DNA from: Thalassotalea sediminis | GTDB taxonomy: Bacteria > Pseudomonadota > Gammaproteobacteria > Enterobacterales > Alteromonadaceae | DNA length: 64,000 nt | Assembly (NCBI RefSeq): GCF_030295915.1 | Contig: NZ_AP027361.1 | Coordinates: 1,736,001 to 1,800,000, forward strand | Direction of reading: 5' to 3' | Shown: positions 40,142 to 52,330 of the stretch, piece by piece | How the letters are laid out: each line of letters opens with the position of its first letter | Numbering within the stretch: the stretch's first letter is position 1 | The notes under the pieces: generated by a model | Databases searched by the model: none | Seen by the model: only the letters and a program-made list of their open reading frames with translations | What the model was told of the DNA's origin: nothing | Translations under genes and position numbers: made by a program

Positions 40142-40504
40142 ATGCCCAAAATTCTAGTTGTAGACGATTCTAACTCTATACGCGATATGGTTAGCTTTAC
40201 TCTGAAAAGTGCGGGCTATGAAACCGTAGAAGCTAAAGATGGTAAGGAAGGGTTAACGCGTGCACAAGCGGGCACTTTCGACCTTGTGATTTCAGATGTC
40301 AATATGCCAATAATGGATGGTATTACCTTGTGCCAAGAGTTACGAAAATTACCCTCATTTAAGTTCACGCCTATTCTCATGTTAACGACTGAAAGCTCAG
40401 GTGATATGAAAATGCGTGGTAAAGCGGCTGGCGCAACAGGATGGCTAGTAAAACCATTCAATCCTGAGAAGTTATTGGCCACAATTAAACGTGTCGTTAG
40501 GTAA
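40142..40504 (+). CDS. cheY: CheY-type response regulator
   Basis: 120 residues, a single receiver domain. Acidic pair at 8-9 (VVDDSNS), phosphoacceptor Asp52 (VISDVNMP), Thr in LTTES and Lys in WLVKPF are all present. The Trp in GATGWLVKPF at the Tyr106 position is usual in CheY proteins of this cluster type. It is followed 6 bases later by cheA. AGGAAAAAAG is upstream. Confidence 0.93.
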   Translation: MPKILVVDDSNSIRDMVSFTLKSAGYETVEAKDGKEGLTRAQAGTFDLVISDVNMPIMDGITLCQELRKLPSFKFTPILMLTTESSGDMKMRGKAAGATGWLVKPFNPEKLLATIKRVVR

Positions 40505-40510
40505 CATGCC

Positions 40511-42646
40511 ATGAGCGTAGATCTTTCTCAATTTATCCCTAATTTCTTAGCTGAAAGTTTCGAAGGACTTGAACTAATGGAGTCAAGTTTATTGAACCTA
40601 GAGCAAGGTGATGACGAAACAATGAATGCTATTTTTCGTGCAGCTCACTCAATTAAAGGGGGAGCAGGTACGTTTGGTTTTGATCATGTTACTGAGTTTA
40701 CTCATTTAGTTGAGACTTTATTAGATGAAATGAGAAATGGTCAACGAGCGATAAAGCAGGATGACGTTGAATTGCTATTGGTATCAGTTGATTGCATGAG
40801 AATGTTAATCGAAGCAATTCGAGACGAAGGTGATTATGACAAGGATAAAATTGACGAAACTTATCAACTCTTGCTCGTCGCATTAAAGGGAAAAGAACCC
40901 GATTTACTGCCAACAACGAATAATAGCACTGATAAAAGTGTTACAAGCACCGATGGTATGACGGAATGGAATATATCGTTTATTCCAGAACACCACCTAG
41001 TACAAACAGGCAATGACCCTTTATTATTATTTAACGCCTTAGCAGAACTCGGTGAGTTGAAAGTTGAGGCTAATTGTAACAACTTACCTTCGATCTTAGA
41101 TGCAGATCCACAAGAGCTTTATTTAAGCTGGAACTTGACCTTGCATTCAAAAAACGCATCTGAAGCGCTTATCAGGGAAGTATTTGAATGGGTAGAAGAT
41201 GAATGTGAACTTACTATTACCCAAAATAAACCCGCCGAATGTGACGTCGAATCAGCAAACCTAGAAGAAAAGCTTACTGCCTCTCAACCTGCTGATAGTA
41301 ATGATACTGCAAACCTTGATGAAAGCCTTACAGTTGAAAAAGTTGCAGAAAATACTCAACAAGAAAAGCAAGTTATAAAAGCGCCAACTAAATCAACGTC
41401 TAAAACTAAAGTTGATGCTGGTTCAATTCGTGTGGGTGTTGATAAGGTCGATAGTTTAATCAATCTTGTTGGCGAATTGGTGATCACGCAATCTATGCTT
41501 TCAGAGCTAGGCTCTGATTTTGATCTGTCAAAAGTTGAGCGTTTAACATCGGGCTTAGAACAATTGTTGCAAAACACAAAAGAGCTCCAAGAAAGTGTGA
41601 TGCGTATTAGAATGTTACCCATTAGTTTTGCTTTTAATCGCTTTCCTCGATTGATTCATGATCTGGGTAAAAAAACAGGTAAAGATATTGAGTTAGTGCT
41701 TAAAGGAGAACAAACCGAACTCGATAAAACGGTGATGGAACAAATTAGTGATCCTTTAGTTCATCTGGTACGAAATGCGGTAGATCACGGCATAGAGACT
41801 GCTGAAGTTAGAGCTGCGAATGGAAAAGCAACCAAAGGTAAAATTGTCCTTGATGCCTATCATCAAGGGGGCAATATTGTTATTGAAATCAAAGATGACG
41901 GCGGTGGTATTAATCGAGATGCTGTTTATAACAAAGCTGTTGAAAAAGGTATTGTCGATGCGGGTACTTCATTAACCGATAACCAAGTTTTCGAATTGAT
42001 TTTTGAACCTGGCTTTTCAACCGCACAAGAAATTAGCGATATTTCTGGACGTGGCGTCGGGATGGATGTTGTTAAGAAAAATATCCAAGCACTGGGGGGG
42101 CGAATTCAAATTGATTCGACGCCAGGCGAAGGCTCAACGTTTAAAGTTAACTTACCATTAACACTTGCAATACTCGATGGTCAACTCGTTAAAGTAGGCT
42201 CTGAAACTTACATTGTACCGCTAATTACTATTGTTGAATCATTGCAAACAAAAGCTGAATTAATCAATCGTGTTTCAGGCGATATGGTGTTGTATCGTTT
42301 ACGAGAAGACAATGTACCTATTATTCCTATTTATAAACTTTTTGGTATTGCAAGCGATGCCGATGCGGACTCTTTAGAAGAAGCATTATTAGTTGTTGTT
42401 GAAGCTGATGGTCAAAAAGTTGGGTTACTTGTAGATGATTTACTTGCTCAACAGCAAGTGGTTATAAAAAGTCTAGATGAAAATTACCAACAAGTGGAAG
42501 GAATTTCAGGAGCAACAATATTAGGCGACGGTTCTGTCGCCATGATCTTAGATATTCCAGGATTGATCGAGTTAGCGATGCAAAATGCTAATCATCGACT
42601 TTCATCGAAAACGCATAGTCCAAGTGCAGAAGGAGCTATGATTTAA
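40511..42646 (+). CDS. cheA: Chemotaxis histidine kinase CheA
   Basis: 711 residues. The Hpt domain has His46 (AAHSIKGGAGTFGF). A middle domain follows (about 155-250, WNISFIPEHHLVQTGNDPLLL) like the P2-like module of this CheA type, then a Ser/Thr/Lys-rich linker, the dimerisation domain (VDSLINLVGELVITQSML), the HATPase (LVRNAVDHGIE, DDGGGINRD, GRGVGMDVV) and a CheW-like domain at the end. It signals from the receptors to CheY and CheB. Its stop overlaps the cheW start by one base (TAATG). Confidence 0.96.
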   Translation: MSVDLSQFIPNFLAESFEGLELMESSLLNLEQGDDETMNAIFRAAHSIKGGAGTFGFDHVTEFTHLVETLLDEMRNGQRAIKQDDVELLLVSVDCMRMLIEAIRDEGDYDKDKIDETYQLLLVALKGKEPDLLPTTNNSTDKSVTSTDGMTEWNISFIPEHHLVQTGNDPLLLFNALAELGELKVEANCNNLPSILDADPQELYLSWNLTLHSKNASEALIREVFEWVEDECELTITQNKPAECDVESANLEEKLTASQPADSNDTANLDESLTVEKVAENTQQEKQVIKAPTKSTSKTKVDAGSIRVGVDKVDSLINLVGELVITQSMLSELGSDFDLSKVERLTSGLEQLLQNTKELQESVMRIRMLPISFAFNRFPRLIHDLGKKTGKDIELVLKGEQTELDKTVMEQISDPLVHLVRNAVDHGIETAEVRAANGKATKGKIVLDAYHQGGNIVIEIKDDGGGINRDAVYNKAVEKGIVDAGTSLTDNQVFELIFEPGFSTAQEISDISGRGVGMDVVKKNIQALGGRIQIDSTPGEGSTFKVNLPLTLAILDGQLVKVGSETYIVPLITIVESLQTKAELINRVSGDMVLYRLREDNVPIIPIYKLFGIASDADADSLEEALLVVVEADGQKVGLLVDDLLAQQQVVIKSLDENYQQVEGISGATILGDGSVAMILDIPGLIELAMQNANHRLSSKTHSPSAEGAMI

Positions 42647-43200
42647 TGGATATTCAAGAACTTGTTAGTGATATACCCGTTGAGGGAGAGTATTCACTTG
42701 AAGGTATTGATTTTATTACTAGTGGTGAACAATACCTCACATTCACACTTGCAAAAGAGCAATACGCTGTTGATATTTTATGTGTCGAAGAAATACGCAG
42801 TTGGGAAAAACCAACGATTATTCCAAATTCTCCCTCGCATGTTTGCGGTGTTATTAATATGCGGGGAGTTATTGTCCCCATCATTGACTTACGGTTGAAA
42901 TTTACTATTGGAGAAGCCGTATACACAGAAACAACCGTTGTGATTGTTTTATCCATCGAAGGCAATGAACGTTCGAAAACCATAGGTTTTGTCGTAGATG
43001 CTGTTTCCGATGTTTTAAATGCCGAAGATACGGATATAAAAAATGCACCGGCCTTCGGTGGGTGTGTACCTCAGCATTTCATCGCAGGTCTTGTAAATGT
43101 AGGTGACAACGTTGTTACCTTACTTAATGTTGAAGCACTTAAACAATTAGAACCACACTCGTCAAAAGTAAGGGGGGAGCAATGGATCAAGAATACCTAA
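42646..43200 (+). CDS. cheW: CheW coupling protein 1
   Basis: 184 residues. A 23-residue N-terminal extension (MDIQELVSDIPVEGEYSLEG) precedes the CheW fold with YLTFTLAKEQYAVDILCVEEIR, INMRGVIVPIIDLRLKF and VDAVSDVL. It couples CheA to receptors. It overlaps both cheA and the second cheW (19 bases), so the three are translationally linked. Confidence 0.94.
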   Translation: MDIQELVSDIPVEGEYSLEGIDFITSGEQYLTFTLAKEQYAVDILCVEEIRSWEKPTIIPNSPSHVCGVINMRGVIVPIIDLRLKFTIGEAVYTETTVVIVLSIEGNERSKTIGFVVDAVSDVLNAEDTDIKNAPAFGGCVPQHFIAGLVNVGDNVVTLLNVEALKQLEPHSSKVRGEQWIKNT

Positions 43201-43691
43201 CCTTTATGCTTAATGGCGAAGAGTACGGTGTCGATATTCTTTGTGTTCAAGAGATCAGAGTTTGGTCAAATGTGACTGAATTACCTAACAAGCCCGACTA
43301 TTTAAAAGGCGTGATAAACCTGCGAGGTGTCATCATTCCTATCATTGATCTAAGGCAACGCTTTGGTCTGCAACCTTTAGAGTATGATGAACAGACTGTT
43401 ACTATTATTTTAAAAAGCCAATCAACAGAACAACCTATGGTTGTAGGTATTGTCGTAGACGCTGTTTCTGAAGTGTATAAATTTGACTTGAATGCGATTA
43501 GAACACCACCAAAGTTTGGCAGTAAAGTTGATGACTGTTTTTTAAAGGGATTAGCAAATATAGAGAATAAACTCATTATTCTTTTAGATAGCAATGCATT
43601 ACTCGATCAAGATGAACTCTATAGTTTATCACCATCCTCTCATTCTAAAGCGTCGACACAGCCGGTAAACGAATGCCAAGCAGCTGATTAA
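43182..43691 (+). CDS. cheW: CheW coupling protein 2
   Basis: 169 residues, about 45 percent like the first CheW by eye ([47 protein letters not shown]) but without the N-terminal extension. A strong GGGGGGAG ribosome site lies inside the first cheW gene. The pair probably arose by duplication and may serve different receptors (the soluble one and the small membrane one). The C-terminal tail is polar and Ser-rich. Confidence 0.94.
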
Positions 43692-43704: not shown

Positions 43705-46461
43705 ATGACACCAAAGCAAATTAGTCTGGTACAGGAAAGTTGGAAAAATGTCTTACCAATTGCCCCTCAGGCAGCTGAAATTTTTTACAGTAATTTATTT
43801 GAGTTAGATCCATCGTTAAAACCTATGTTTAAAAACGATATGAAAGCTCAAGGTAAAAAATTAATGGCAATGTTAGATACCGCAGTAAAACTTTTGAATG
43901 AACCCGATAAATTGCTACCAGCGGTAGAAAAGTTAGGTGAGGGACACGTTAAGTATGGTGTAAAACCTGAGCATTACGACACGGTTGGAGAAGCGTTAAT
44001 TAAAACGTTGGAAATTGGATTAGGTGATGACTTTAAAGCGCCCGTTAAGCGAGCTTGGCTCGCAGTTTATAAAAAACTATCGACAACCATGATTGCAGCT
44101 GCGAATGCAGTAGATGAAAAAGATAACTCGACAAGGAAACCTAAAGCTATGAACCGTAAAACTGACGACCAAGGGCTATTTATTAGTGCTGCGATAGAGC
44201 AGTCTGGCACTGCTTTTATGATGATAGATCGAGACTTCATTGTTAATTATGTTAATGAATCCACGATGAAATTATTGAAAAAGCATGAAGCTATATTTCA
44301 ACAAAAATGGCCAGGTTTTAAAGCAGAGAAAGATGAAATTTTGGGTACATGTATTGATGTTTTTCATGTTAACCCAGAACATCAACGTAAACTATTATCT
44401 GATCCAAGTAACCTGCCTTATGTTACTGATATTACAATTGAACACTTGATAATAGAGTTGAATGTAACGGCGATAAATGATGCAGAGGGTAATTATATAG
44501 GTAATTCGTTGGAGTGGAGTGATGTCACCGCAACAAGGGCTGCTGAAGATAAAGCGGCACAATTACAAGGTGCTATAGATCAATCTGGCACGCCTAGTAT
44601 GCTTATTGATCGAGATTTCAATATTACTTATGCCAACTACGCGACACTAGCACTTTTGAAAAAACATGAGGCGACCTTTGCTAAAAAATGGCCAGGTTTT
44701 AAAGCAGATGAAGAATCAATTCTAGGTACCTGTATCGATGGTTTTCATAAAAACCCAGCACATCAACGCGAGTTATTAAGTGATCCTAATAACCTGCCTT
44801 TTAAAACTGATATTAGAATCGAACACCTGATCTTTGAATTGAATGTAACAGCAGTGATGGATGTGCGTGGTAATTACATTGGTAATAGCCTTGAGTGGCA
44901 AGACGTCACGGTAGCACGCGCAAAATCAGTTGAAGTAGGGCGTTTAACATCTGCGGTAGAAGGCATGTCGACTAATTTAATGATGGCTGATTTACAAGGC
45001 AATATTGTTTATGCAAATCCCGCTGTAAAAGCAATGCTTAGAAGGCGCGAAACTAGGTTAAGAGCAGTTTTACCGTCATTTAGTGTAGACACTATGATTG
45101 GTACCAATTTTGATAGTTTTCATCAAAACCCCGCACATCAACAAAACTTGCTTGGTAACCCTGATAATTTACCTTATAAAACGGAAATATCAGTGACAGG
45201 GTTAACTTTTGAACTTATTGCTATAGCGTTAAAAGATGAAGATGGTAATCACGTAGGAACCGCCGTTCAATGGCTAGATTTGACCGAAGAAAGAGATGCG
45301 CAAAATCAAGTAGAGAAGCTGATTAACGACGCGATTTCAGGAAAGTTAGATAGTCGTATTGCCACAGAAGAATACTCGGGCTTCATGAAAGGCTTAGGTG
45401 AGTCAATTAATAATTTGATGAATGCGATTGTTGAGCCAATCACTGAGGCAATTAATGTTGCGCAAGCACTTTCTGATGGCGATCTTACGCAAACTATGGA
45501 TGGTGAATATGCAGGTGAGTTTTTAGCCTTATCGAATGCCATGAATGGTTCTATTAATAATTTAAATAATATGGTGGACGCAATTAGAGCTGCTTCGACT
45601 AATGTATTCGATTCTGCGAGAGAAATAGCTGAAGGCAACAACGAACTAAGCCACCGTACAGAGTCCCAAGCTTCTAGCCTTGAAGAAACAGCATCGGCAA
45701 TGGAAGAAATTACCAGTACTGTTCAACAAAACGCCGATAATGCCACTGAAGCGAGTAAGCTGTCGCTCGAAGTTATGGATAAAGCGACAAATGGTGGTGC
45801 TGTTGTTAAAAATGCCATTACAGCAATGAGTGATATTAATAAGTCGAGTAAGAAAATTGCCGACATTATAAGTGTTATTGATGAAATTGCTTTTCAAACG
45901 AATTTGTTGGCGCTTAATGCCGCGGTTGAGGCTGCAAGGGCTGGTGAACAAGGTAGAGGCTTTGCTGTGGTAGCTGCAGAAGTACGTAACTTAGCACAGC
46001 GTTCAGCTGGTGCTGCAAAAGAGATTAAAGGCTTAATTAATGACAGTGTTGAAGCTGTAGGTCAAGGTACCAAGCTTGTAGACGAAACAGGACAAACGTT
46101 TACAGAACTTGTGTCATCTATCGAAGAAGTTGGCAAAATGATCAGTGATATTGATAGTGCAGGTAAAGAGCAGGCTGCCGGTATAGGTGAAGTGAGTGCA
46201 GCTGTCAGTCAAATGGATGAAATGACGCAGCAAAATGCAGCCTTGGTTGAAGAAGCTGCTGCTTCGAGTAAATCAATGGAAGACCAAGCACAAAGCTTAT
46301 TAGAACAAGTTTCTTTCTTTAACAACAATGAGCATGAAGCAGCGCCAGCCAATGTTGCGCCAGTAACTCGCATTACGCGAAAAGCGATCGAAAAACCGGC
46401 GACTAAAGCGCGGGTGAGACGTGATCCAATTGCGTCTGATCAGGAATGGGAAGAGTTTTAA
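43705..46461 (+). CDS. Soluble globin-PAS-PAS-PAS chemoreceptor
   Basis: 918 residues, no membrane helix. The N-terminal globin domain (about 1-140) is of the flavohaemoglobin/Vitreoscilla type with CD1 Phe42 (KPMF) and proximal His81 (GEGHVKYGV). Three related PAS domains (about 150-275, 285-405, 410-530) each have CIDxFHxNPxHQ-like or [11 protein letters not shown] blocks. A HAMP-like linker and the MCP signalling tip ([31 protein letters not shown]) follow. It ends in EWEEF, an xWxxF pentapeptide that tethers CheR and CheB. The likely role is to sense O2, NO or another haem ligand and control the CheA of this cluster. AAAGGAGC precedes the ATG. Confidence 0.95.
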
Positions 46462-46470
46462 GCGGCATCT

Positions 46471-47316
46471 ATGAGTCAAGTTAGGGAGAAGGCGTTTAGG
46501 TTGACGGATAAAGAATTCAATTTTATCTGTCAATTTGTCTACCAAAACACGGGAATTGTGCTCAACGATAGTAAGCGAGAGATGGTTTATCGTCGTTTAA
46601 CGCGAATTGTCAGAGAACGTAAATTGCCGTCTTTTAGTGATTACTGTCGTTTATTGAGAGATAACAGTGAACAAGAAACGCCGTTCTTTATTAATGCGAT
46701 CACGACTAATTTAACAAGTTTTTTTAGAGAAAAGCACCACTTTGATTATTTGTTAAGCCATGAATTGCCTCAGCTAGTGCAGAAAAATGCTAGCAGTAAA
46801 AGAATACGGATTTGGTCTTCCGCCTGTTCTACAGGTGAAGAGCCGTACAGCATAGCAATGACACTTTATAAAGTGCTGAAGCCTTATTTCTCTTCATGGG
46901 ATGTGAAAGTGCTAGCAACTGATATTGATAGTGAAGTATTGGCAAAAGCTAAATCGGGCATTTATGCACAAAACCGTATCGAGGATTTACCTGACGACTA
47001 TAAGAAAGCGTTTTTTAAACGTGGAACAGGAAAAAATAGCGATAACGTTATAGTTGATGGTTGTATCCAACAGCTTATTACATTCAAACAACTAAATTTA
47101 CTTAATGGTTGGCCTATGTCTGGCCCATTTGATGTGATTTTTTGTCGTAATGTCATTATTTACTTTGATAAACCAACACAACTTGAATTGTTTGAGCGTT
47201 ATTATGAAATGTTAGCACCTGGTGGTTTATTAATACTTGGACACAGCGAAAACTTAGGAAGTTATCAGCAATACTTTACTAATGTGGGGCGAACTATTTT
47301 TCGTAAACCGGAGTAG
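46471..47316 (+). CDS. cheR: Chemotaxis methyltransferase CheR
   Basis: 281 residues. The N-terminal helical domain includes GIVLNDSKREMVYRRLTRI. The SAM-binding domain has IWSSACSTGEEPYSIAM, LATDIDSEVLAKA, VIFCRNVIIYFD and GGLLILGHSE. It methylates receptor glutamates; the receptor next to it ends in a pentapeptide that should dock to the beta-subdomain. The gap to the receptor stop is 9 bases. Confidence 0.96.
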   Translation: MSQVREKAFRLTDKEFNFICQFVYQNTGIVLNDSKREMVYRRLTRIVRERKLPSFSDYCRLLRDNSEQETPFFINAITTNLTSFFREKHHFDYLLSHELPQLVQKNASSKRIRIWSSACSTGEEPYSIAMTLYKVLKPYFSSWDVKVLATDIDSEVLAKAKSGIYAQNRIEDLPDDYKKAFFKRGTGKNSDNVIVDGCIQQLITFKQLNLLNGWPMSGPFDVIFCRNVIIYFDKPTQLELFERYYEMLAPGGLLILGHSENLGSYQQYFTNVGRTIFRKPE

Positions 47317-47340
47317 CAACAATGTATATGGGCAATATTT

Positions 47341-48003
47341 ATGAGCTTAGTTAGCCATCAACATGAGGTACAGCAATGCATCATCCATTGTTTGCCTGAG
47401 TTTGAGCATATTAATCATTACTGGGATAAACACCGACAAACCGTGGTTGCAAAAATACTACCTGGTGAATTTTATATGACTCAGGATAACGTCATGATTG
47501 CTACGACGTTAGGCTCCTGTATTTCAGCATGCATTTGGGATGATAAAGTCGGCTTGGGAGGCATGAATCACTTTATGTTACCGCTGACAGATAAAGAAGC
47601 TCATGAAGTAGATTGGGGACAAAGAGGGCAAGCGAGTGATGCGACGAGGTATGGTAATTTTGCTATGGAACACCTCGTTAATACCATATTGAAAAACGGT
47701 GGCCGAAGAATAAATTTACGCGCTAAGGTTTTTGGTGGCGGTAAGGTATTAAAGCAAATGTCAGATGTCGGACAAAAAAATATTACCTTTGTTTTAGATT
47801 ACTTAGAGAAAGAAAACATAAAAATACTGGGATCAGATATCGGCTCATATTACCCAAGAAAAGTATTGTTTGATCCGAAAAGCGGCCGCGCGTTTGTCAA
47901 GAAACTTGATAATTTACATAACGATACAATTGCCAAGCGTGAAACTAATTACAGGTCTAGTATTGATACACAACAGGTTGATGGTGAAATTGAACTCTTT
48001 TAA
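47341..48003 (+). CDS. cheD: Chemoreceptor deamidase CheD
   Basis: 220 residues. The CheD core has ATTLGSCISACIWD with the catalytic Cys, GGMNHFMLP with the catalytic His, and RINLRAKVFGGGKVLKQM. It deamidates receptor glutamines and can help CheC-type control, though no cheC is seen here. The C-terminus ends in VDGEIELF, an acidic ELF tail that recurs in two other proteins of the cluster. An earlier in-frame start is not evident. Confidence 0.95.
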   Translation: MSLVSHQHEVQQCIIHCLPEFEHINHYWDKHRQTVVAKILPGEFYMTQDNVMIATTLGSCISACIWDDKVGLGGMNHFMLPLTDKEAHEVDWGQRGQASDATRYGNFAMEHLVNTILKNGGRRINLRAKVFGGGKVLKQMSDVGQKNITFVLDYLEKENIKILGSDIGSYYPRKVLFDPKSGRAFVKKLDNLHNDTIAKRETNYRSSIDTQQVDGEIELF

Positions 48004-48014
48004 AGGTTGTATTA

Positions 48015-49103
48015 ATGAATAAAATCAAAGTGCTAGTCATTGATGATTCGTCCGTTATACGCAATATAGTGACAGAAATTCTAAACCAAGACGAGTTCAT
48101 TGAGGTTGTAGGCGAGGCGAAAGATCCTTTTGATGCTCGCGAGAAAATTAAATTGTTAAACCCTGATGTGTTAACACTTGATGTTGAAATGCCCAAAATG
48201 GATGGGATTACATTTTTAAGTAATTTGATGCGGTTAAGACCAATGCCTGTCGTAATGTTATCGACGTTGACTACACATGGCGCCGATATAACGTTAGAAG
48301 CACTTGAATTAGGTGCTGTAGACTTTATTGCCAAACCTACCTTTGAGGAATTATTAAGTAGCAAAGACAGTTTTGAAACCTTGTTACTGGAAAAAGTTAA
48401 ATCTGCTGTAGCGGTAGATCAAAAAAACTATGCGTTAGCAAAAGCTTCTCTGAAGCGAGAAGGAAACACTGCGATTCGCTTTACAGGTGTTAAAAGAGCG
48501 AATCATCTTATTGCGATAGGTGCATCTACTGGCGGTACTGAAGCGATTAAACAGGTTTTAATGTCTATGCCTTCTAATGCACCGGGTATTGTAATAACAC
48601 AGCACATTCCTAAAACATTCAGTGAAAGGTTCGCCAACCGATTAAATGAATGTTGTGAGATTCAAGTACAAGAAGCCAAGCATGGCCAAAAAATAAAGGA
48701 CGGTAACGCCTATATATCGCCAGGTGATCTACACTTAACTATTGCTCATAAAGGTGGAGGTTTATTCTGTGTACTAGAAGATTCACCACCGGTTAATCGT
48801 CATAAACCATCGGTTGACGTATTGTTTTCCTCATTAGTAGACATTGCTGATAATGTGCAAGCGGTATTACTAACTGGGATGGGACAAGATGGCGCGCAAG
48901 GTATGTTGTCTTTAAAAAAATTGGGTGCAAGAACGGTCATTCAAGATAAAAAAAGTAGTCTTATTTGGGGCATGCCAGGCAGTGCTTATCGTTTAAATGC
49001 ACAGTGCGAAGCGTTTGATTTAAACGAGATTGCTAGACAACTTTTAATGTATGCAGGTTTAGATCGTATCAAAATGCAGGAGATGTACCCTCATGATCAA
49101 TAG
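48015..49103 (+). CDS. cheB: Chemotaxis methylesterase CheB
   Basis: 362 residues. The receiver domain has Asp56 (LTLDVEMPKMDG). The methylesterase domain has the catalytic Ser in IGASTGGTEAI, His in TQHIPKTFSERF and Asp in GMGQDGAQGM. It removes methyl groups from receptors and sets adaptation with CheR. The start follows AAAGG, 11 bases after cheD, and the gene overlaps the next by 11 bases. Confidence 0.96.
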   Translation: MNKIKVLVIDDSSVIRNIVTEILNQDEFIEVVGEAKDPFDAREKIKLLNPDVLTLDVEMPKMDGITFLSNLMRLRPMPVVMLSTLTTHGADITLEALELGAVDFIAKPTFEELLSSKDSFETLLLEKVKSAVAVDQKNYALAKASLKREGNTAIRFTGVKRANHLIAIGASTGGTEAIKQVLMSMPSNAPGIVITQHIPKTFSERFANRLNECCEIQVQEAKHGQKIKDGNAYISPGDLHLTIAHKGGGLFCVLEDSPPVNRHKPSVDVLFSSLVDIADNVQAVLLTGMGQDGAQGMLSLKKLGARTVIQDKKSSLIWGMPGSAYRLNAQCEAFDLNEIARQLLMYAGLDRIKMQEMYPHDQ

Positions 49104-50274
49104 AGAACCTCTATTTATTTCATTGTTACTGTCAACAATATTATTGAGTATTAATTTACTGCTATTGAACTGGGGAATACTCAGCATTTTATGTTTGGCC
49201 ACAAATTTTATTTGTTTAATGGGGCTGTTTTGGCTAGAAAAACAGCAAGAAAAAGTTACGTTAGCGCATAAGACGCCACAGATTATACACGATGACGCTT
49301 CGATTAAAGATGCTTTGAATAAAGTTGAGCAAGTTATTGAGTTACAAGTAAGTGTTATAGAAAAAGAAATCTCTCGTACTAAAACATTGGTGAAAGATGC
49401 CGTCGCAGGTATTTCTGATAGCTTTCATTATTTGCAAAGTCTTAGTGTTGAGCAACAACAAATGATTAATTCAGTATTAGAGAATAGCCAAGGTATCGGA
49501 GATGATCATTCAACGACGTTGGAAGAGTTTGTTCTAGATTCTGGTAAAACATTAGAAAGTTTTGTTGAAGTGATTGTTAATACGAGTAAGCAAAGTTTAC
49601 AAACGATGTCTTATACTGATGACATGGTTGAACAATTTGACGGTATTTTTAACTTGATCAGTCAGGTTGAGAACTTAGCAAGTCAAACGAATTTGTTAGC
49701 GCTTAACGCTGCTATAGAAGCTGCACGTGCGGGTGAAGCTGGGAGAGGTTTTGCGGTAGTTGCTAATGAAGTGAGAACGCTGTCTGTTAGCTCAACCGAA
49801 CTAAACAATGATATACGTCTGCAAATAAGTGATGCAAAAGCCATTATTGAGAAATTGCGAGGTTCTGTTGAACAAATGGCTTCTGCGGATATGACATCGA
49901 CCTTAGAAGCTAAGAACAATGTCAGTGTCATGATGCAGCAAGTGCGAGATATGAACGAGCAAAGTGCGCACATCGTTGAAGAACTGGCTACAATTTCACC
50001 AAAAATTTCAGAGACGGTAGCATTAGCGGTAAGATCACTACAGTTTGAAGATTTAACCTATCAATCTTTAGCGTCACTTGAGCATAATCTAGCGAGTTTA
50101 AAACAATTATCTACGCGTATTGAATCATTTGATGCGCAAAGTGATGATGCGTCTAGTCAACTAATTGCACTCGCAAATGATTGTCAAACTATTATCGACA
50201 ATACACATGAAATGGATAGTAAACGCAGTGTTTCTCAGTCTTCAATGGATGAAGGCGATGTAGAATTATTTTAA
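49093..50274 (+). CDS. Membrane-anchored minimal chemoreceptor
   Basis: 393 residues. Two adjacent hydrophobic helices (about 8-30 and 34-52) form a hairpin with almost no periplasmic loop. A helical cytoplasmic rod and a signalling tip follow ([37 protein letters not shown]). There is no ligand-binding domain, and the rod is short compared with a full receptor. It ends in EGDVELF. It may work as a signalling adaptor or membrane sensor within the cluster. It overlaps cheB by 11 bases. Confidence 0.92.
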   Translation: MINREPLFISLLLSTILLSINLLLLNWGILSILCLATNFICLMGLFWLEKQQEKVTLAHKTPQIIHDDASIKDALNKVEQVIELQVSVIEKEISRTKTLVKDAVAGISDSFHYLQSLSVEQQQMINSVLENSQGIGDDHSTTLEEFVLDSGKTLESFVEVIVNTSKQSLQTMSYTDDMVEQFDGIFNLISQVENLASQTNLLALNAAIEAARAGEAGRGFAVVANEVRTLSVSSTELNNDIRLQISDAKAIIEKLRGSVEQMASADMTSTLEAKNNVSVMMQQVRDMNEQSAHIVEELATISPKISETVALAVRSLQFEDLTYQSLASLEHNLASLKQLSTRIESFDAQSDDASSQLIALANDCQTIIDNTHEMDSKRSVSQSSMDEGDVELF

Positions 50275-50295: not shown

Positions 50296-50604
50296 ATGAA
50301 CGTAAAAAAACAAGTGTCAGCCGATAACAAAACAATCACCATTTCGATCGATGATCGATTTGACTTTTCTTTGCATCAACAATTTAAAGAAGCTTATGTT
50401 GATGCAAATGAGTCAGGTACTTCATTTATACTCGATTTGTCAGGTACTTCATATATGGATAGCTCGGCTTTAGGGATGATTTTGTTATTAAAAGACCACG
50501 CAGAAAAGGTGACAGGGCAGTTGAAAATCGTAAACCCTAATGAAGCCGTTAATAAGATTTTAGAAATTGCGCAATTTCATCGATTAATGACCATAGAGCT
50601 CTAA
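50296..50604 (+). CDS. STAS-domain anti-sigma-factor antagonist (partner-switch)
   Basis: 102 residues. The fold is ITISIDDRFDFSLHQQFKEAY, and the phospho-acceptor region LSGTSYMDSSALGMILLLKDH carries the usual Ser in DSSALG. It lies one base before the REC-PP2C-HATPase gene, the usual arrangement of a partner-switch pair (HsbA/HsbR in Pseudomonas aeruginosa, CrsA/CrsR in Shewanella). It should be phosphorylated by the HATPase domain and dephosphorylated by the PP2C domain of that neighbour. Confidence 0.93.
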   Translation: MNVKKQVSADNKTITISIDDRFDFSLHQQFKEAYVDANESGTSFILDLSGTSYMDSSALGMILLLKDHAEKVTGQLKIVNPNEAVNKILEIAQFHRLMTIEL

Positions 50605-50605
50605 C

Positions 50606-52330
50606 ATGAATGAAGCGTTCGGTAACGAGAAACTTGCTTTAGTTGTTGATGACTCTGAAATGCAATGCAAAGTGTTAGGGATATTGTTAAAAGAAGAAGG
50701 CTACCGAGTATTAAGTGCAAATGATGGTGCGCAAGGTGTTTCAATGTATATCAAATATCAACCTGATTTGGTATTGATGGACATTAATATGCCAATAATG
50801 AATGGTCATGAAGCGGCAAGAAAAATAAAAGCATTGTCTAAAGATAATAGCCTTTGCCCGTTGATCTTTATTACCAGTATGGCGACTGATCAGGCTTATA
50901 TCGACAGTATAGAAGCGGGCGGCGATGGTATTTTAGTGAGACCCTTTTCACCTGAAGTGTTTAAAGCAAAAATAAAGTCAATTCAACGTATTAGCGATCT
51001 AATATTAAAGAATAAAGCCTTGCAACAAGCGCAACAAAAGGATGCAGAACTGGCTGAGCAATTGATGTCAGGTGTTATAGAGTCTAGGAATTATGCAAGG
51101 GATAAAATTGGTATTCTTAAAAAGGCCGCAACGTTATTTAGTGGCGATATTCAACTGACAGCGCTATGCCCTAATGGTGATGTTAATGTGATGCTAGGCG
51201 ACTTTACTGGTCATGGATTACGTTCATCAATAGGGGCAATACCGTTGTCTGAAACGTTTAGAACGATGACGAAGAAGGGGTTTTCTTTAATAGAAATTAT
51301 TAGTCAGGTTAATCAACAATTACATCAACTTTTACCGCCTGATCTTTTTCTCGCTGCGGCTTTTGTAACAGTATCAAGTAATGACAATACGGTTTATATT
51401 TTTAATGCTGGCATACCTGACGTTTATATTTTTGGTCAGTCAGGCAGCATTAAGCACCGCGTTTCATCAAATCATCCCCCTATAGGTGTTATGCCTGCAT
51501 TATTAGACGATATTGGGTTAAGTGTTTTTTCTGTCGCGGAAACAGACCGTGTGGTATTGATCAGCGATGGTATTGTTGAAGCGCGAAATGCACAGGGCGA
51601 AATGTATGAATTCGAACGTTTTGAACAGGCTGCTTCCAAAGGGATTATACAAAATAACATTAAGGATGAAGTGTTATCAAGTGTTGAACAATTTTGTCAA
51701 AATATGCAGCAGGAGGACGACATTTCACTTATTGATATTCCATGCGATGGGTGGCAACAAACATTTGCTGTTAGTGCAGCTCCTGTAACCGATCAAGGTC
51801 ATGATTATTCATTTGATGTTGAAGCCGCTTGGCAATGGCGTTTGAAGTTGACCGGTAGTCGACTTTCTCATGTTAACCCTATCCCGCTTGCAATGAACCA
51901 AATCCAAGAGATTGAGGGTAATGAAGATCATCTACAAAGTTTATTTACTATCTTAACAGAGCTTTTTGTTAATTCACTAGATCATGGTGTGTTGGGGCTT
52001 GACTCCACAATGAAGTCTTGTGCGGATGGTTTTGCAGAATACTTTATGGAAAGAGAGCGCCGTTTAAAAGTTATAACTGATGGTTTTGTAGAGATTAATT
52101 TGAGTTTTTATCCGAATGCATCGGGTGGTCGTGTCGTTATTGGTATTGCTGATAGTGGTAATGGTTTTAATGTTAATAAATACAATGACATGATTCGTGA
52201 CCATCAAATGCAACAAGAAGAAAGGTCAAAGTTAAGTGGTAGAGGTATTCATTTAGTGAGTCAGCTTTGTGAATCGTTACAATATTTTGACCAGGGAAAT
52301 CAAGTACAAGCAAGTTACGTATGGAATTAA
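50606..52330 (+). CDS. REC-PP2C-HATPase partner-switching regulator (HsbR/CrsR-like)
   Basis: 574 residues. The receiver domain (about 8-125) has VVDDSEMQC and LVLMDINMPIMNG. A helical linker (about 130-165) leads to a SpoIIE/PP2C phosphatase (about 170-375; VMLGDFTGHGLRSSIGA, VLISDGIVEARN) and then a serine-kinase-type HATPase (about 410-574; LTELFVNSLDHGVLG, GIADSGNGFNV, LSGRGIHLV). It fuses kinase and phosphatase for the adjacent STAS protein under control of phosphorylation, as in HsbR and CrsR. Output in those cases is sigma-S or FlgM; here it is not known. Confidence 0.93.
   Translation: MNEAFGNEKLALVVDDSEMQCKVLGILLKEEGYRVLSANDGAQGVSMYIKYQPDLVLMDINMPIMNGHEAARKIKALSKDNSLCPLIFITSMATDQAYIDSIEAGGDGILVRPFSPEVFKAKIKSIQRISDLILKNKALQQAQQKDAELAEQLMSGVIESRNYARDKIGILKKAATLFSGDIQLTALCPNGDVNVMLGDFTGHGLRSSIGAIPLSETFRTMTKKGFSLIEIISQVNQQLHQLLPPDLFLAAAFVTVSSNDNTVYIFNAGIPDVYIFGQSGSIKHRVSSNHPPIGVMPALLDDIGLSVFSVAETDRVVLISDGIVEARNAQGEMYEFERFEQAASKGIIQNNIKDEVLSSVEQFCQNMQQEDDISLIDIPCDGWQQTFAVSAAPVTDQGHDYSFDVEAAWQWRLKLTGSRLSHVNPIPLAMNQIQEIEGNEDHLQSLFTILTELFVNSLDHGVLGLDSTMKSCADGFAEYFMERERRLKVITDGFVEINLSFYPNASGGRVVIGIADSGNGFNVNKYNDMIRDHQMQQEERSKLSGRGIHLVSQLCESLQYFDQGNQVQASYVWN

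What the first reader, a model, noticed from the sequence alone, without database searches (positions are those of the whole stretch)
43705..46461. Soluble chemoreceptor with a flavohaemoglobin-type globin and three PAS domains
The globin part has Phe42 and proximal His81 and resembles single-domain haemoglobins more than the HemAT globin-coupled sensors. Together with three PAS domains and an EWEEF tail in a che2/Aer2-type cluster, it looks like a multi-haem gas sensor with several input sites.
Basis: partly seen in the sequence, partly recalled or inferred. Interest (0 to 1): 0.65.

Follow-up and report, generated by a model that had tools for sequence, protein, structure and literature searches.

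The report
Globin-capped oxygen receptor with hidden start
A marine bacterium carries an oxygen-sensing chemotaxis-type receptor with three haem-type PAS domains plus an extra haemoglobin at its front end, and the gene appears to hold a second start signal that would also make the same receptor without the haemoglobin.

Summary
In detail: window 43705-46461 (+) is a 918-aa soluble receptor: 3/3 globin (1-135), low-confidence linker, three haem-type PAS domains, HAMP, Tsr-like signalling domain, EWEEF tail, inside a CheY-A-W-W-receptor-R-D-B cluster. It is a tri-PAS Aer2 with an added globin, closest to Hell's Gate globin I (Z 22.3, rmsd 1.1 A), not to HemAT.

New points. (1) 35 of 37 close Aer2 genes in 295 sampled genomes of the family have the cap; 28 keep five haem-pocket residues, 7 are degenerate. 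(2) In 37 full-length capped receptors haem-type PAS number runs from 1 to 7 at a near-fixed 127-residue pitch, while the globin-PAS linker runs from 18 to 92 residues. (3) 36 of these 37 keep an in-frame ATG in that linker; in 29 of 36 its Shine-Dalgarno-like site is as strong as at most real starts. This predicts a second, globin-less Aer2.

So the several-input sensor is partly supported: the PAS array is very likely the O2 input; the globin looks like a tethered accessory. New variant of a known kind. I have no haem, gas or translation data.

The parts
43705..46461 (+). whole receptor gene, 918 aa, globin-capped Aer2
43705..44109 (+). N-terminal 3/3 globin cap (residues 1-135): Tyr28 B10, Phe42 CD1, Gln49 E7, Lys52 E10, His81 F8
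   Evidence: model mean pLDDT 95.1; closest fold 3s1i
44110..44169 (+). linker of low predicted confidence between globin and PAS1 (residues 136-155)
44133..44137 (+). Shine-Dalgarno-like AAGGA inside the linker (11 bases between it and the ATG, a longish spacing)
44149..44151 (+). in-frame ATG, codon 149: predicted internal start of a globin-less receptor of 770 aa
44170..44538 (+). haem-type PAS1 (His221, Trp271)
44551..44919 (+). haem-type PAS2 (His348, Trp398)
44932..45294 (+). haem-type PAS3 (His473, Trp523), next to HAMP, 35% and 40% identical to PAS1 and PAS2
45394..45567 (+). HAMP (HAMP_2, residues 564-621)
45763..46227 (+). MCP signalling domain, same length as E. coli Tsr over the 1qu7 region
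46444..46458 (+). EWEEF C-terminal tether for CheR
   Evidence: motif x-[HFYW]-x2-[HFYW] from PMC7184735 (passages)
40142..40504 (+). CheY-type response regulator
40511..42646 (+). CheA kinase
42646..43691 (+). two CheW genes (42646-43200 and 43182-43691)
46471..49103 (+). CheR, CheD, CheB
49093..50274 (+). second MCP, at the place of McpA-like receptors (label by place and domain only)
50296..52330 (+). STAS protein and REC-SpoIIE phosphatase-HATPase protein, like Shewanella CrsA/CrsR by domains and place: candidate output to the stress sigma factor
   Evidence: description of the che1 locus in PMC9855816 (passages)

Best explanation
The gene is an F7-class Aer2 oxygen receptor to whose N-terminus an HGbI-type single-domain haemoglobin has been added. 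The three haem-PAS domains are stacked in line and, as reported for V. vulnificus and V. cholerae Aer2, pass O2 binding through PAS3, HAMP and the Tsr-like stalk to the cluster's CheA (inferred from family). The globin, with a Tyr-B10/Gln-E7 pocket, binds O2 (and probably NO) but hangs on a length-variable, probably disordered tether, so it acts as an accessory (local O2 store or NO guard) rather than a rigid in-line input. A second ribosome start at codon 149 makes a globin-less tri-PAS Aer2 from the same message, so the array is a mixture of capped and uncapped receptors. Shown: sequence anatomy, conservation, linker and start-site statistics. Inferred: haem binding, ligand, tether role, existence of the short protein.
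For: Anatomy and haem residues. Globin fold: mean pLDDT 95.1, best match HGbI 3s1i, Z 22.3, rmsd 1.1 A over 131 residues. Same length as Tsr over 1qu7 (223 and 223 residues). Cluster order the same in the 14 capped loci listed, as far as each stretch reaches. Tether: linker 18-92 residues in 37 capped receptors, PAS pitch 127 in 88 of 92, last PAS to hairpin 198 residues in 41 of the 42 receptors listed, 38 capped and 4 cap-less, linker pLDDT about 34-35. Internal start: in-frame linker ATG in 36 of 37 capped receptors; best anti-SD energy averages -5.0 against -1.5 for 1006 other internal Met codons and -5.1 for the 37 real starts; at or below -4 in 29 of 36, against 10.5% of the 1006 and 34 of 37 starts. 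Codon-order shuffles of the same linkers predict 7.2, not 29; one per genus code, 8 of 11 observed, 1.46 expected, P 2e-5. Met is 45 of 1155 linker residues but 5 of 1990 C-tail residues. mRNA round the last linker ATG is less folded (mean -3.7) than at all linker codons (-5.9) or other internal ATGs (-8.2). The SD is spelt by different residues in different receptors (KG, KE, EE, EGD, RK). Globin-less tri-PAS Aer2 exists on its own in 7 of the 8 matching genomes of other families of the order.
Against: No haem, gas, kinase or protein-product data. In the window the AAGGA lies 11 bases before the ATG; better-spaced sites are in relatives. Seven of 36 sites are weak (-2.1 to -3.3); in L158 the strong one is not the ATG next to PAS1. 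L037 and L045 are weak too (-2.1, -2.4). L088, a separate fusion, has no linker start; L088 and L037's genus were not in the one-per-genus test, so counting them would give 8 of 13. Synonymous resampling gives nearly as good sites (-4.2 vs -5.0), so the SD is carried mainly by the amino acids and a peptide-level reason cannot be excluded. Relatives are not independent. In the full-length model (mean 63, pTM 0.27) the PAS-PAS joints also dip (281-290: 48; 411-420: 35). Cap constraint in the window pair (dN/dS 0.026) would also fit a direct sensor; another intact pair, L035/L133, gives 0.122.
Confidence: 0.55

Rival explanations
1. The globin is a direct input site: ligand binding to its haem changes helix H and is passed to PAS1 and on to CheA, giving a receptor with two ranges of O2 (or O2 plus NO) sensing.
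For: Five pocket residues intact in 28 of 35 capped close relatives, the window included; strong constraint on the cap (dN/dS 0.026); [quoted passage not shown] PMC4476040, parts 1-2 of 4).
Against: Variable linker of low confidence; degenerate caps kept in 7 of 35; HGbRL's site-swapped shape is not what the monomer model shows, best fold is HGbI; predicted cap-less form.
Confidence: 0.25
2. The cap is now mainly structural: an assembly, spacing or targeting domain of the tall F7 array, with haem kept in some lineages only.
For: On the receptor tree the degenerate caps fall most simply in three places, two label changes being forced by starred branches, while the domain stayed (residues); array layers track receptor domains in cryo-ET of relatives (PMC7184735, passages).
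Against: In the window and 27 other relatives all five pocket residues are kept.
Confidence: 0.15
3. The linker ATG and SD are a fossil of the aer2 start left by the fusion and do nothing.
For: A globin gene beside a separate aer2 exists in one che cluster (L094), so fusion by read-through is plausible.
Against: The linker changes fast (6 non-synonymous, 0 synonymous differences in 21 codons between window and G002) and its length varies five-fold, yet the ATG persists in 36 of 37 and a strong SD in 29 of 36.
Confidence: 0.25
4. An ordinary tri-PAS Aer2 with no special meaning to the globin (random domain acquisition).
For: Tri-PAS Aer2 is known from V. vulnificus (review PMC13401364, passages).
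Against: Cap present in 35 of 37 close relatives over 12 genus codes, and fused globins in more than one place on the globin tree.
Confidence: 0.08

Closest known systems
Vibrio vulnificus Aer2, tri-PAS-haem O2 sensor (Stuffle et al. 2022; paper not held, seen only through passages of the review PMC13401364)
   Same: three N-terminal haem-PAS domains, O2 sensor; NCBIfam Vibrio Aer2 model aligns to residues 136-918
   Different: no globin is described for it in the passages read; the window protein has one plus a predicted internal start
Vibrio cholerae / P. aeruginosa Aer2 (PDB 6ceq, 3vol)
   Same: haem-PAS with His and Trp; F7 cluster; pentapeptide tail
   Different: two or one PAS; no globin described in the passages read
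HemAT and other globin-coupled chemoreceptors (e.g. Atu1027)
   Same: N-terminal globin on a soluble MCP (PMC10851874, passages)
   Different: HemAT's domain is Protoglobin PF11563 (PMC6194562, passages); no PF11563 match here at E 0.1; no haem-PAS array described
Methylacidiphilum infernorum HGbI and HGbRL
   Same: Tyr-B10, Gln-E7, Lys-E10, no D helix; closest fold HGbI, closest sequence HGbRL
   Different: free globin, or fused to Roadblock/LC7, not to a chemoreceptor
Corallococcus coralloides Cc_4972 (PMC6194562, passages)
   Same: one MCP with PAS and globin domains, proposed in silico as an aerotaxis receptor
   Different: Bac_globin (PF01152) domain in a different cluster; haem-PAS array not described in the passages read

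Membership tests
Aer2 (F7-class soluble haem-PAS chemoreceptor) | PAS domains with haem-ligating His and O2-stabilising Trp | tested here: met
   His221/348/473, Trp271/398/523; PAS3 aligns to 6ceq and 3vol. Sequence only
Aer2 (F7-class soluble haem-PAS chemoreceptor) | class 36H signalling domain | tested here: met
   equal length to Tsr over 1qu7, 223 residues each; heptads were not counted by a dedicated model
Aer2 (F7-class soluble haem-PAS chemoreceptor) | C-terminal x-[HFYW]-x2-[HFYW] tether | tested here: met
   EWEEF; rule from PMC7184735 (passages)
Aer2 (F7-class soluble haem-PAS chemoreceptor) | HAMP between PAS and signalling domain; no transmembrane segment | tested here: met
   HAMP_2; highest 19-residue hydropathy mean 1.24
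Aer2 (F7-class soluble haem-PAS chemoreceptor) | gene in a CheA/CheW/CheR/CheD/CheB cluster | tested here: met
Aer2 (F7-class soluble haem-PAS chemoreceptor) | binds b haem and signals O2 | not testable with these tools
   needs purified protein
NCBIfam equivalog NF041847 (Vibrio Aer2) | score at or above 1200 bits | tested here: not met
   1091.4 bits over residues 136-918: a relative, not that equivalog
Globin-coupled sensors of HemAT type | S-family/protoglobin sensor domain (PF11563) | tested here: not met
   no PF11563 match at E 0.1; PF00042 instead
HGbI-like single-domain F-family globin | Tyr-B10, Phe-CD1, Gln-E7, His-F8, no helix D | tested here: met
HGbRL site-swapped globin | fused helices E and F | tested here: inconclusive
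   monomer model breaks between helices E and F; TM 0.46-0.48 to 3wfw/3wfx; a dimer was not modelled
Flavohaemoglobin | C-terminal FAD/NAD reductase | tested here: not met
   no such domain in the Pfam list for the 918 aa

The most novel reading that the evidence does not exclude
One gene makes two oxygen receptors: a globin-capped one and, from a conserved internal ribosome start in the linker, an ordinary tri-PAS Aer2. Mixed arrays then carry a tunable number of tethered high-affinity globins, and lineages tune the same array further by changing the number of haem-PAS modules from one to seven.
Probability: 0.5. Interest if true: 0.75.

Novelty: new variant of a known kind. Interest (0 to 1): 0.62.

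Why it matters
Why Aer2 receptors carry several haem-PAS domains is, to my knowledge, open; here nature offers a series with 1 to 7 modules at one pitch, with intact, haem-degenerate and absent globin caps, in otherwise similar receptors. That makes the roles of module number and of the cap directly testable in one E. coli assay. If the internal start is real, it is a simple way for a bacterium to set the mix of two sensors from one gene. The downstream STAS and REC-phosphatase-HATPase pair suggests that oxygen may feed the general stress response rather than, or as well as, swimming.

Tried and rejected
HemAT-type globin-coupled sensor: rejected, PF00042 and HGbI fold, no PF11563 match. Flavohaemoglobin: rejected, no reductase. 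A site-swapped HGbRL-like dimer: not supported by the monomer model, not excluded. A general link of this globin family with chemotaxis genes: not found. Of 31 loci with a globin outside a receptor listed, only L094 lies in a che cluster; L041, L042 and L176 have an MCP-type gene (71-76 bits) within the stretch, in L176 about 1 kb away on the same strand, not followed. Of 29 loci of the class search and 3 of the order search (about 1.5 kb each side) none lies between che genes; L183 has CheB and CheY pieces on the other strand, L181 a weak CheB match (33 bits). In the family of G962, 4 of 20 genomes have the globin, with no second che-linked case seen. Plasmid search: 21 records, all under 60% identity; in the 20 listed the feature under the match, where one is given, is a globin protein. 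The full-length model is too poor for domain packing. Foldseek against the viral library was not run. Print: ten paper searches listed nothing that I recognised as a globin-capped Aer2; the library is open-access only, so 'not in print' is not claimed. The globin tree has only 133 columns and several long branches; fused globins need most simply 3 changes, at least 2 by starred branches, so the number of fusions is unsure. Of 103 aligned globins 74 were in that tree; left out were 9 degenerate or divergent caps, 9 flavohaemoglobins, 7 actinobacterial rows and 4 globins of incomplete receptors. L037, L038, L045 and L174 were not in the 37-receptor statistics (start mis-trimmed, no haem-PAS, or incomplete); they are told apart. 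L038's cap is found by the profile made here, not by Pfam at E 0.01.

Full report
What is there. Window 43705-46461 (+) is one open frame of 918 aa. Pfam finds Globin 27-129, PAS_8 413-464, HAMP_2 564-621 and MCPsignal 687-841. NCBIfam's Vibrio Aer2 model aligns to residues 136-918 with 1091 bits, under its cut-off of 1200: what follows the globin is an Aer2 relative, and the globin is extra. A PAS profile made here finds three units, 156-278, 283-405, 410-530. Each has the haem His motif FHxNPxHQ and the Trp that holds O2 in Aer2 (roles as stated in PMC9855816, passages). The best solved relatives, matched at PAS3, are the haem-PAS domains of V. cholerae and P. aeruginosa Aer2. The signalling part has the same length as E. 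coli Tsr over the 1qu7 region, 223 residues each, as expected of class 36H; the tail is EWEEF. The highest 19-residue hydropathy mean is 1.24, too low for a membrane helix by the usual rule (the rule is recalled).

The globin. It carries Tyr28 (B10), Phe42 (CD1), Gln49 (E7), Lys52 (E10) and His81 (F8). Closest by sequence are HGbRL (6e-27) and HGbI (1e-23) of Methylacidiphilum, then neuroglobins (from 3e-14), then single-domain and flavohaemoglobins (about 3e-10). The predicted fold (mean pLDDT 95.1) matches oxygen-bound HGbI best, Z 22.3, rmsd 1.1 A over 131 residues. In HGbI Tyr-B10 and Gln-E7 hold O2 and affinity is very high; HGbRL shows Lys-E10/His hexacoordination (PMC4476040, parts 1 and 2 of 4). 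The window globin therefore should bind O2 tightly and may be Lys-His hexacoordinate when empty; both are inference. In HGbRL helices E and F fuse and swap; here the model breaks between helices E and F and TM to HGbRL is 0.46-0.48. It is the only PF00042 match of the genome at E 0.001.

Relatives. Among 295 genomes of the same family sampled, I count 37 with a close Aer2 (64% identity or more over PAS3-HAMP; G012's match is in two pieces). From, 35 of these 37 carry an N-terminal globin and 2 (G003, of the same genus, and G105) do not: these have about 390 other residues ending in a HAMP before a single haem-PAS. In G012, G126, G192 and G270 the receptor is broken over contigs or masked stretches and the cap was read from the N-terminal piece. 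Of the 35, 28 (window included) have all five pocket residues; 7 (G005, G012, G130, G157, G176, G195, G212) have lost Phe-CD1 and Gln-E7, and three of those (G005, G012, G176) also the proximal His in the alignment. On the tree of PAS3-HAMP-MCP the degenerate caps fall most simply in three places; starred branches force two label changes (G012 not in that tree). Nearest named organisms are Thalassotalea, Colwellia and Litorilituus. In other families of the order, 8 of the genomes matched have an Aer2-like receptor; none of the 8 has a globin by the profile used, and 7 are tri-PAS with the first strong start 29-36 residues before PAS1. A separate capped Aer2 with one PAS is in a Spongiibacteraceae bin (L088). 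Receptors with a related cap but non-haem PAS lie at the same place of the cluster in G007 (L038: PAS_3) and G073 (L174).

Modules. In 37 capped full-length receptors the number of haem-type PAS units is 1 (1 receptor), 2 (6), 3 (15), 4 (8), 5 (4), 6 (2) and 7 (1). The step from one PAS to the next is 127 residues in 88 of 92 cases (126 in 3, 125 in 1). From the last PAS to the hairpin it is 198 in 41 of the 42 receptors listed (38 capped, 4 cap-less; L088 274). Middle units can be near-copies: 99.7% identical DNA in L074, 98.4% in L076, 93.2% in the seven-PAS L033. The PAS next to HAMP stays distinct, 33-42% identical to the others in the 11 receptors compared. By the pattern used, 5 of 129 units lack the His motif (in L079, L116, L135, L157, L158). 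By contrast the stretch from globin to PAS1 runs from 18 to 92 residues and is unconfident in the model (the PAS-PAS joints dip there too). A near-fixed pitch among PAS and a free tether for the globin argue that only the PAS array is mechanically in line.

A second start. While reading the linkers I saw an in-frame ATG in nearly all, the last one 6 to 14 codons before PAS1. Of 37 capped receptors tested 36 have one; L088 has not. The upstream bases pair with the 16S tail as well as at the real starts: best site -5.0 on average, 37 real starts -5.1, 1006 other internal Met codons -1.5. With the last linker ATG taken without choice, the mean is -4.9 and 28 of 36 are at -4 or better. Shuffling the codon order of each linker gives 7.2 of 36 expected, 29 observed; with one receptor per genus code 8 of 11 against 1.46, P 2e-5; L088 and G005, which would count against, were not in that test. 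Met is about fifteen times commoner in the linker than in the C-tail (45/1155 against 5/1990). The mRNA round the ATG is less folded than at linker codons in general (-3.7 against -5.9). Against: synonymous resampling keeps most of the strength (-4.2), 7 of 36 sites are weak, and relatives share descent. In the window itself the site is AAGGA, 11 bases before the ATG at 44149; no other of its 27 internal Met codons has as strong a site. L038 and L174, with other PAS types, have very strong sites (-8.2, -7.8); L037 and L045 weak ones. The simplest reading is that the gene makes a capped receptor and a plain tri-PAS Aer2 of 770 aa.

Separate globin gene. In L094, a contig of a metagenome bin, a stand-alone globin of the same family sits between cheW and cheR of an Aer2 cluster. 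It is the only such case found, but shows that the partnership exists without fusion.

Cluster and output. Order CheY-CheA-CheW-CheW-receptor-CheR-CheD-CheB is kept in the 14 capped loci listed as far as each stretch reaches. Elsewhere the genome has a 707-codon frame with a CheW domain, probably a second CheA, and 22 MCP-domain matches in all. Downstream, 50296-50604 is a STAS protein and 50606-52330 a receiver-SpoIIE phosphatase-HATPase protein. [quoted passage not shown] the domains here suggest the same output. This is by domain and place only.

Mechanism. Most likely O2 binding to the PAS haems changes CheA activity through PAS3 and HAMP, as reported for V. vulnificus Aer2 (review PMC13401364, passages). 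The globin supplies a tethered O2- or NO-binding site whose number per array depends on the ratio of the two start sites. The rival that the globin is itself an input keeps a fair chance, since its pocket is strongly conserved in this lineage.

Novelty. Aer2 with several haem-PAS domains is known; a globin and PAS in one MCP has been noted in print, with a Bac_globin domain (PMC6194562, passages). I saw no report of an HGbI-type globin on Aer2, of up to seven haem-PAS units, or of an internal start, in the listings of ten searches of an open-access library and the passages read. New variant of a known kind.

Noticed in passing
L033 8335-12678 (G028), L074, L076, L084: Globin-capped Aer2 receptors with 5 to 7 haem-PAS modules; best DNA identity between middle modules 93.2, 99.7, 98.4 and 86.4%: recent tandem copying in some.
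   Followed up: partly
L094 4989-5450: Stand-alone HGbI-type globin gene between cheW and cheR in an Aer2 cluster of a metagenome bin: unfused version of the same pair.
   Followed up: partly
L014, L015, L142, L136, L137, L129, L131: Caps that have lost haem-pocket residues, three of them (L014, L015, L142) the proximal His, in otherwise normal haem-PAS receptors.
   Followed up: partly
L132, L130 (G003, G105): Close Aer2 relatives in which globin and PAS1-2 are replaced by about 390 residues with a HAMP and hydrophobic stretches, probably a membrane sensor.
   Followed up: partly
L086 4536-5465, L098 4917-5873: Tandem double globins in Aquimarina bins, both copies with the full pocket signature.
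   Followed up: no
window 50296-52330: STAS plus receiver-phosphatase-HATPase pair like Shewanella CrsA/CrsR behind the che genes.
   Followed up: partly
L176 5353-6378: A more distant stand-alone globin with an MCP-type gene (73 bits) about 1 kb away on the same strand.
   Followed up: no
L099 4002-5384, L101 4050-5384: Bacteroidota proteins of about 450 aa with a related globin at the C-terminal end of a longer protein.
   Followed up: no
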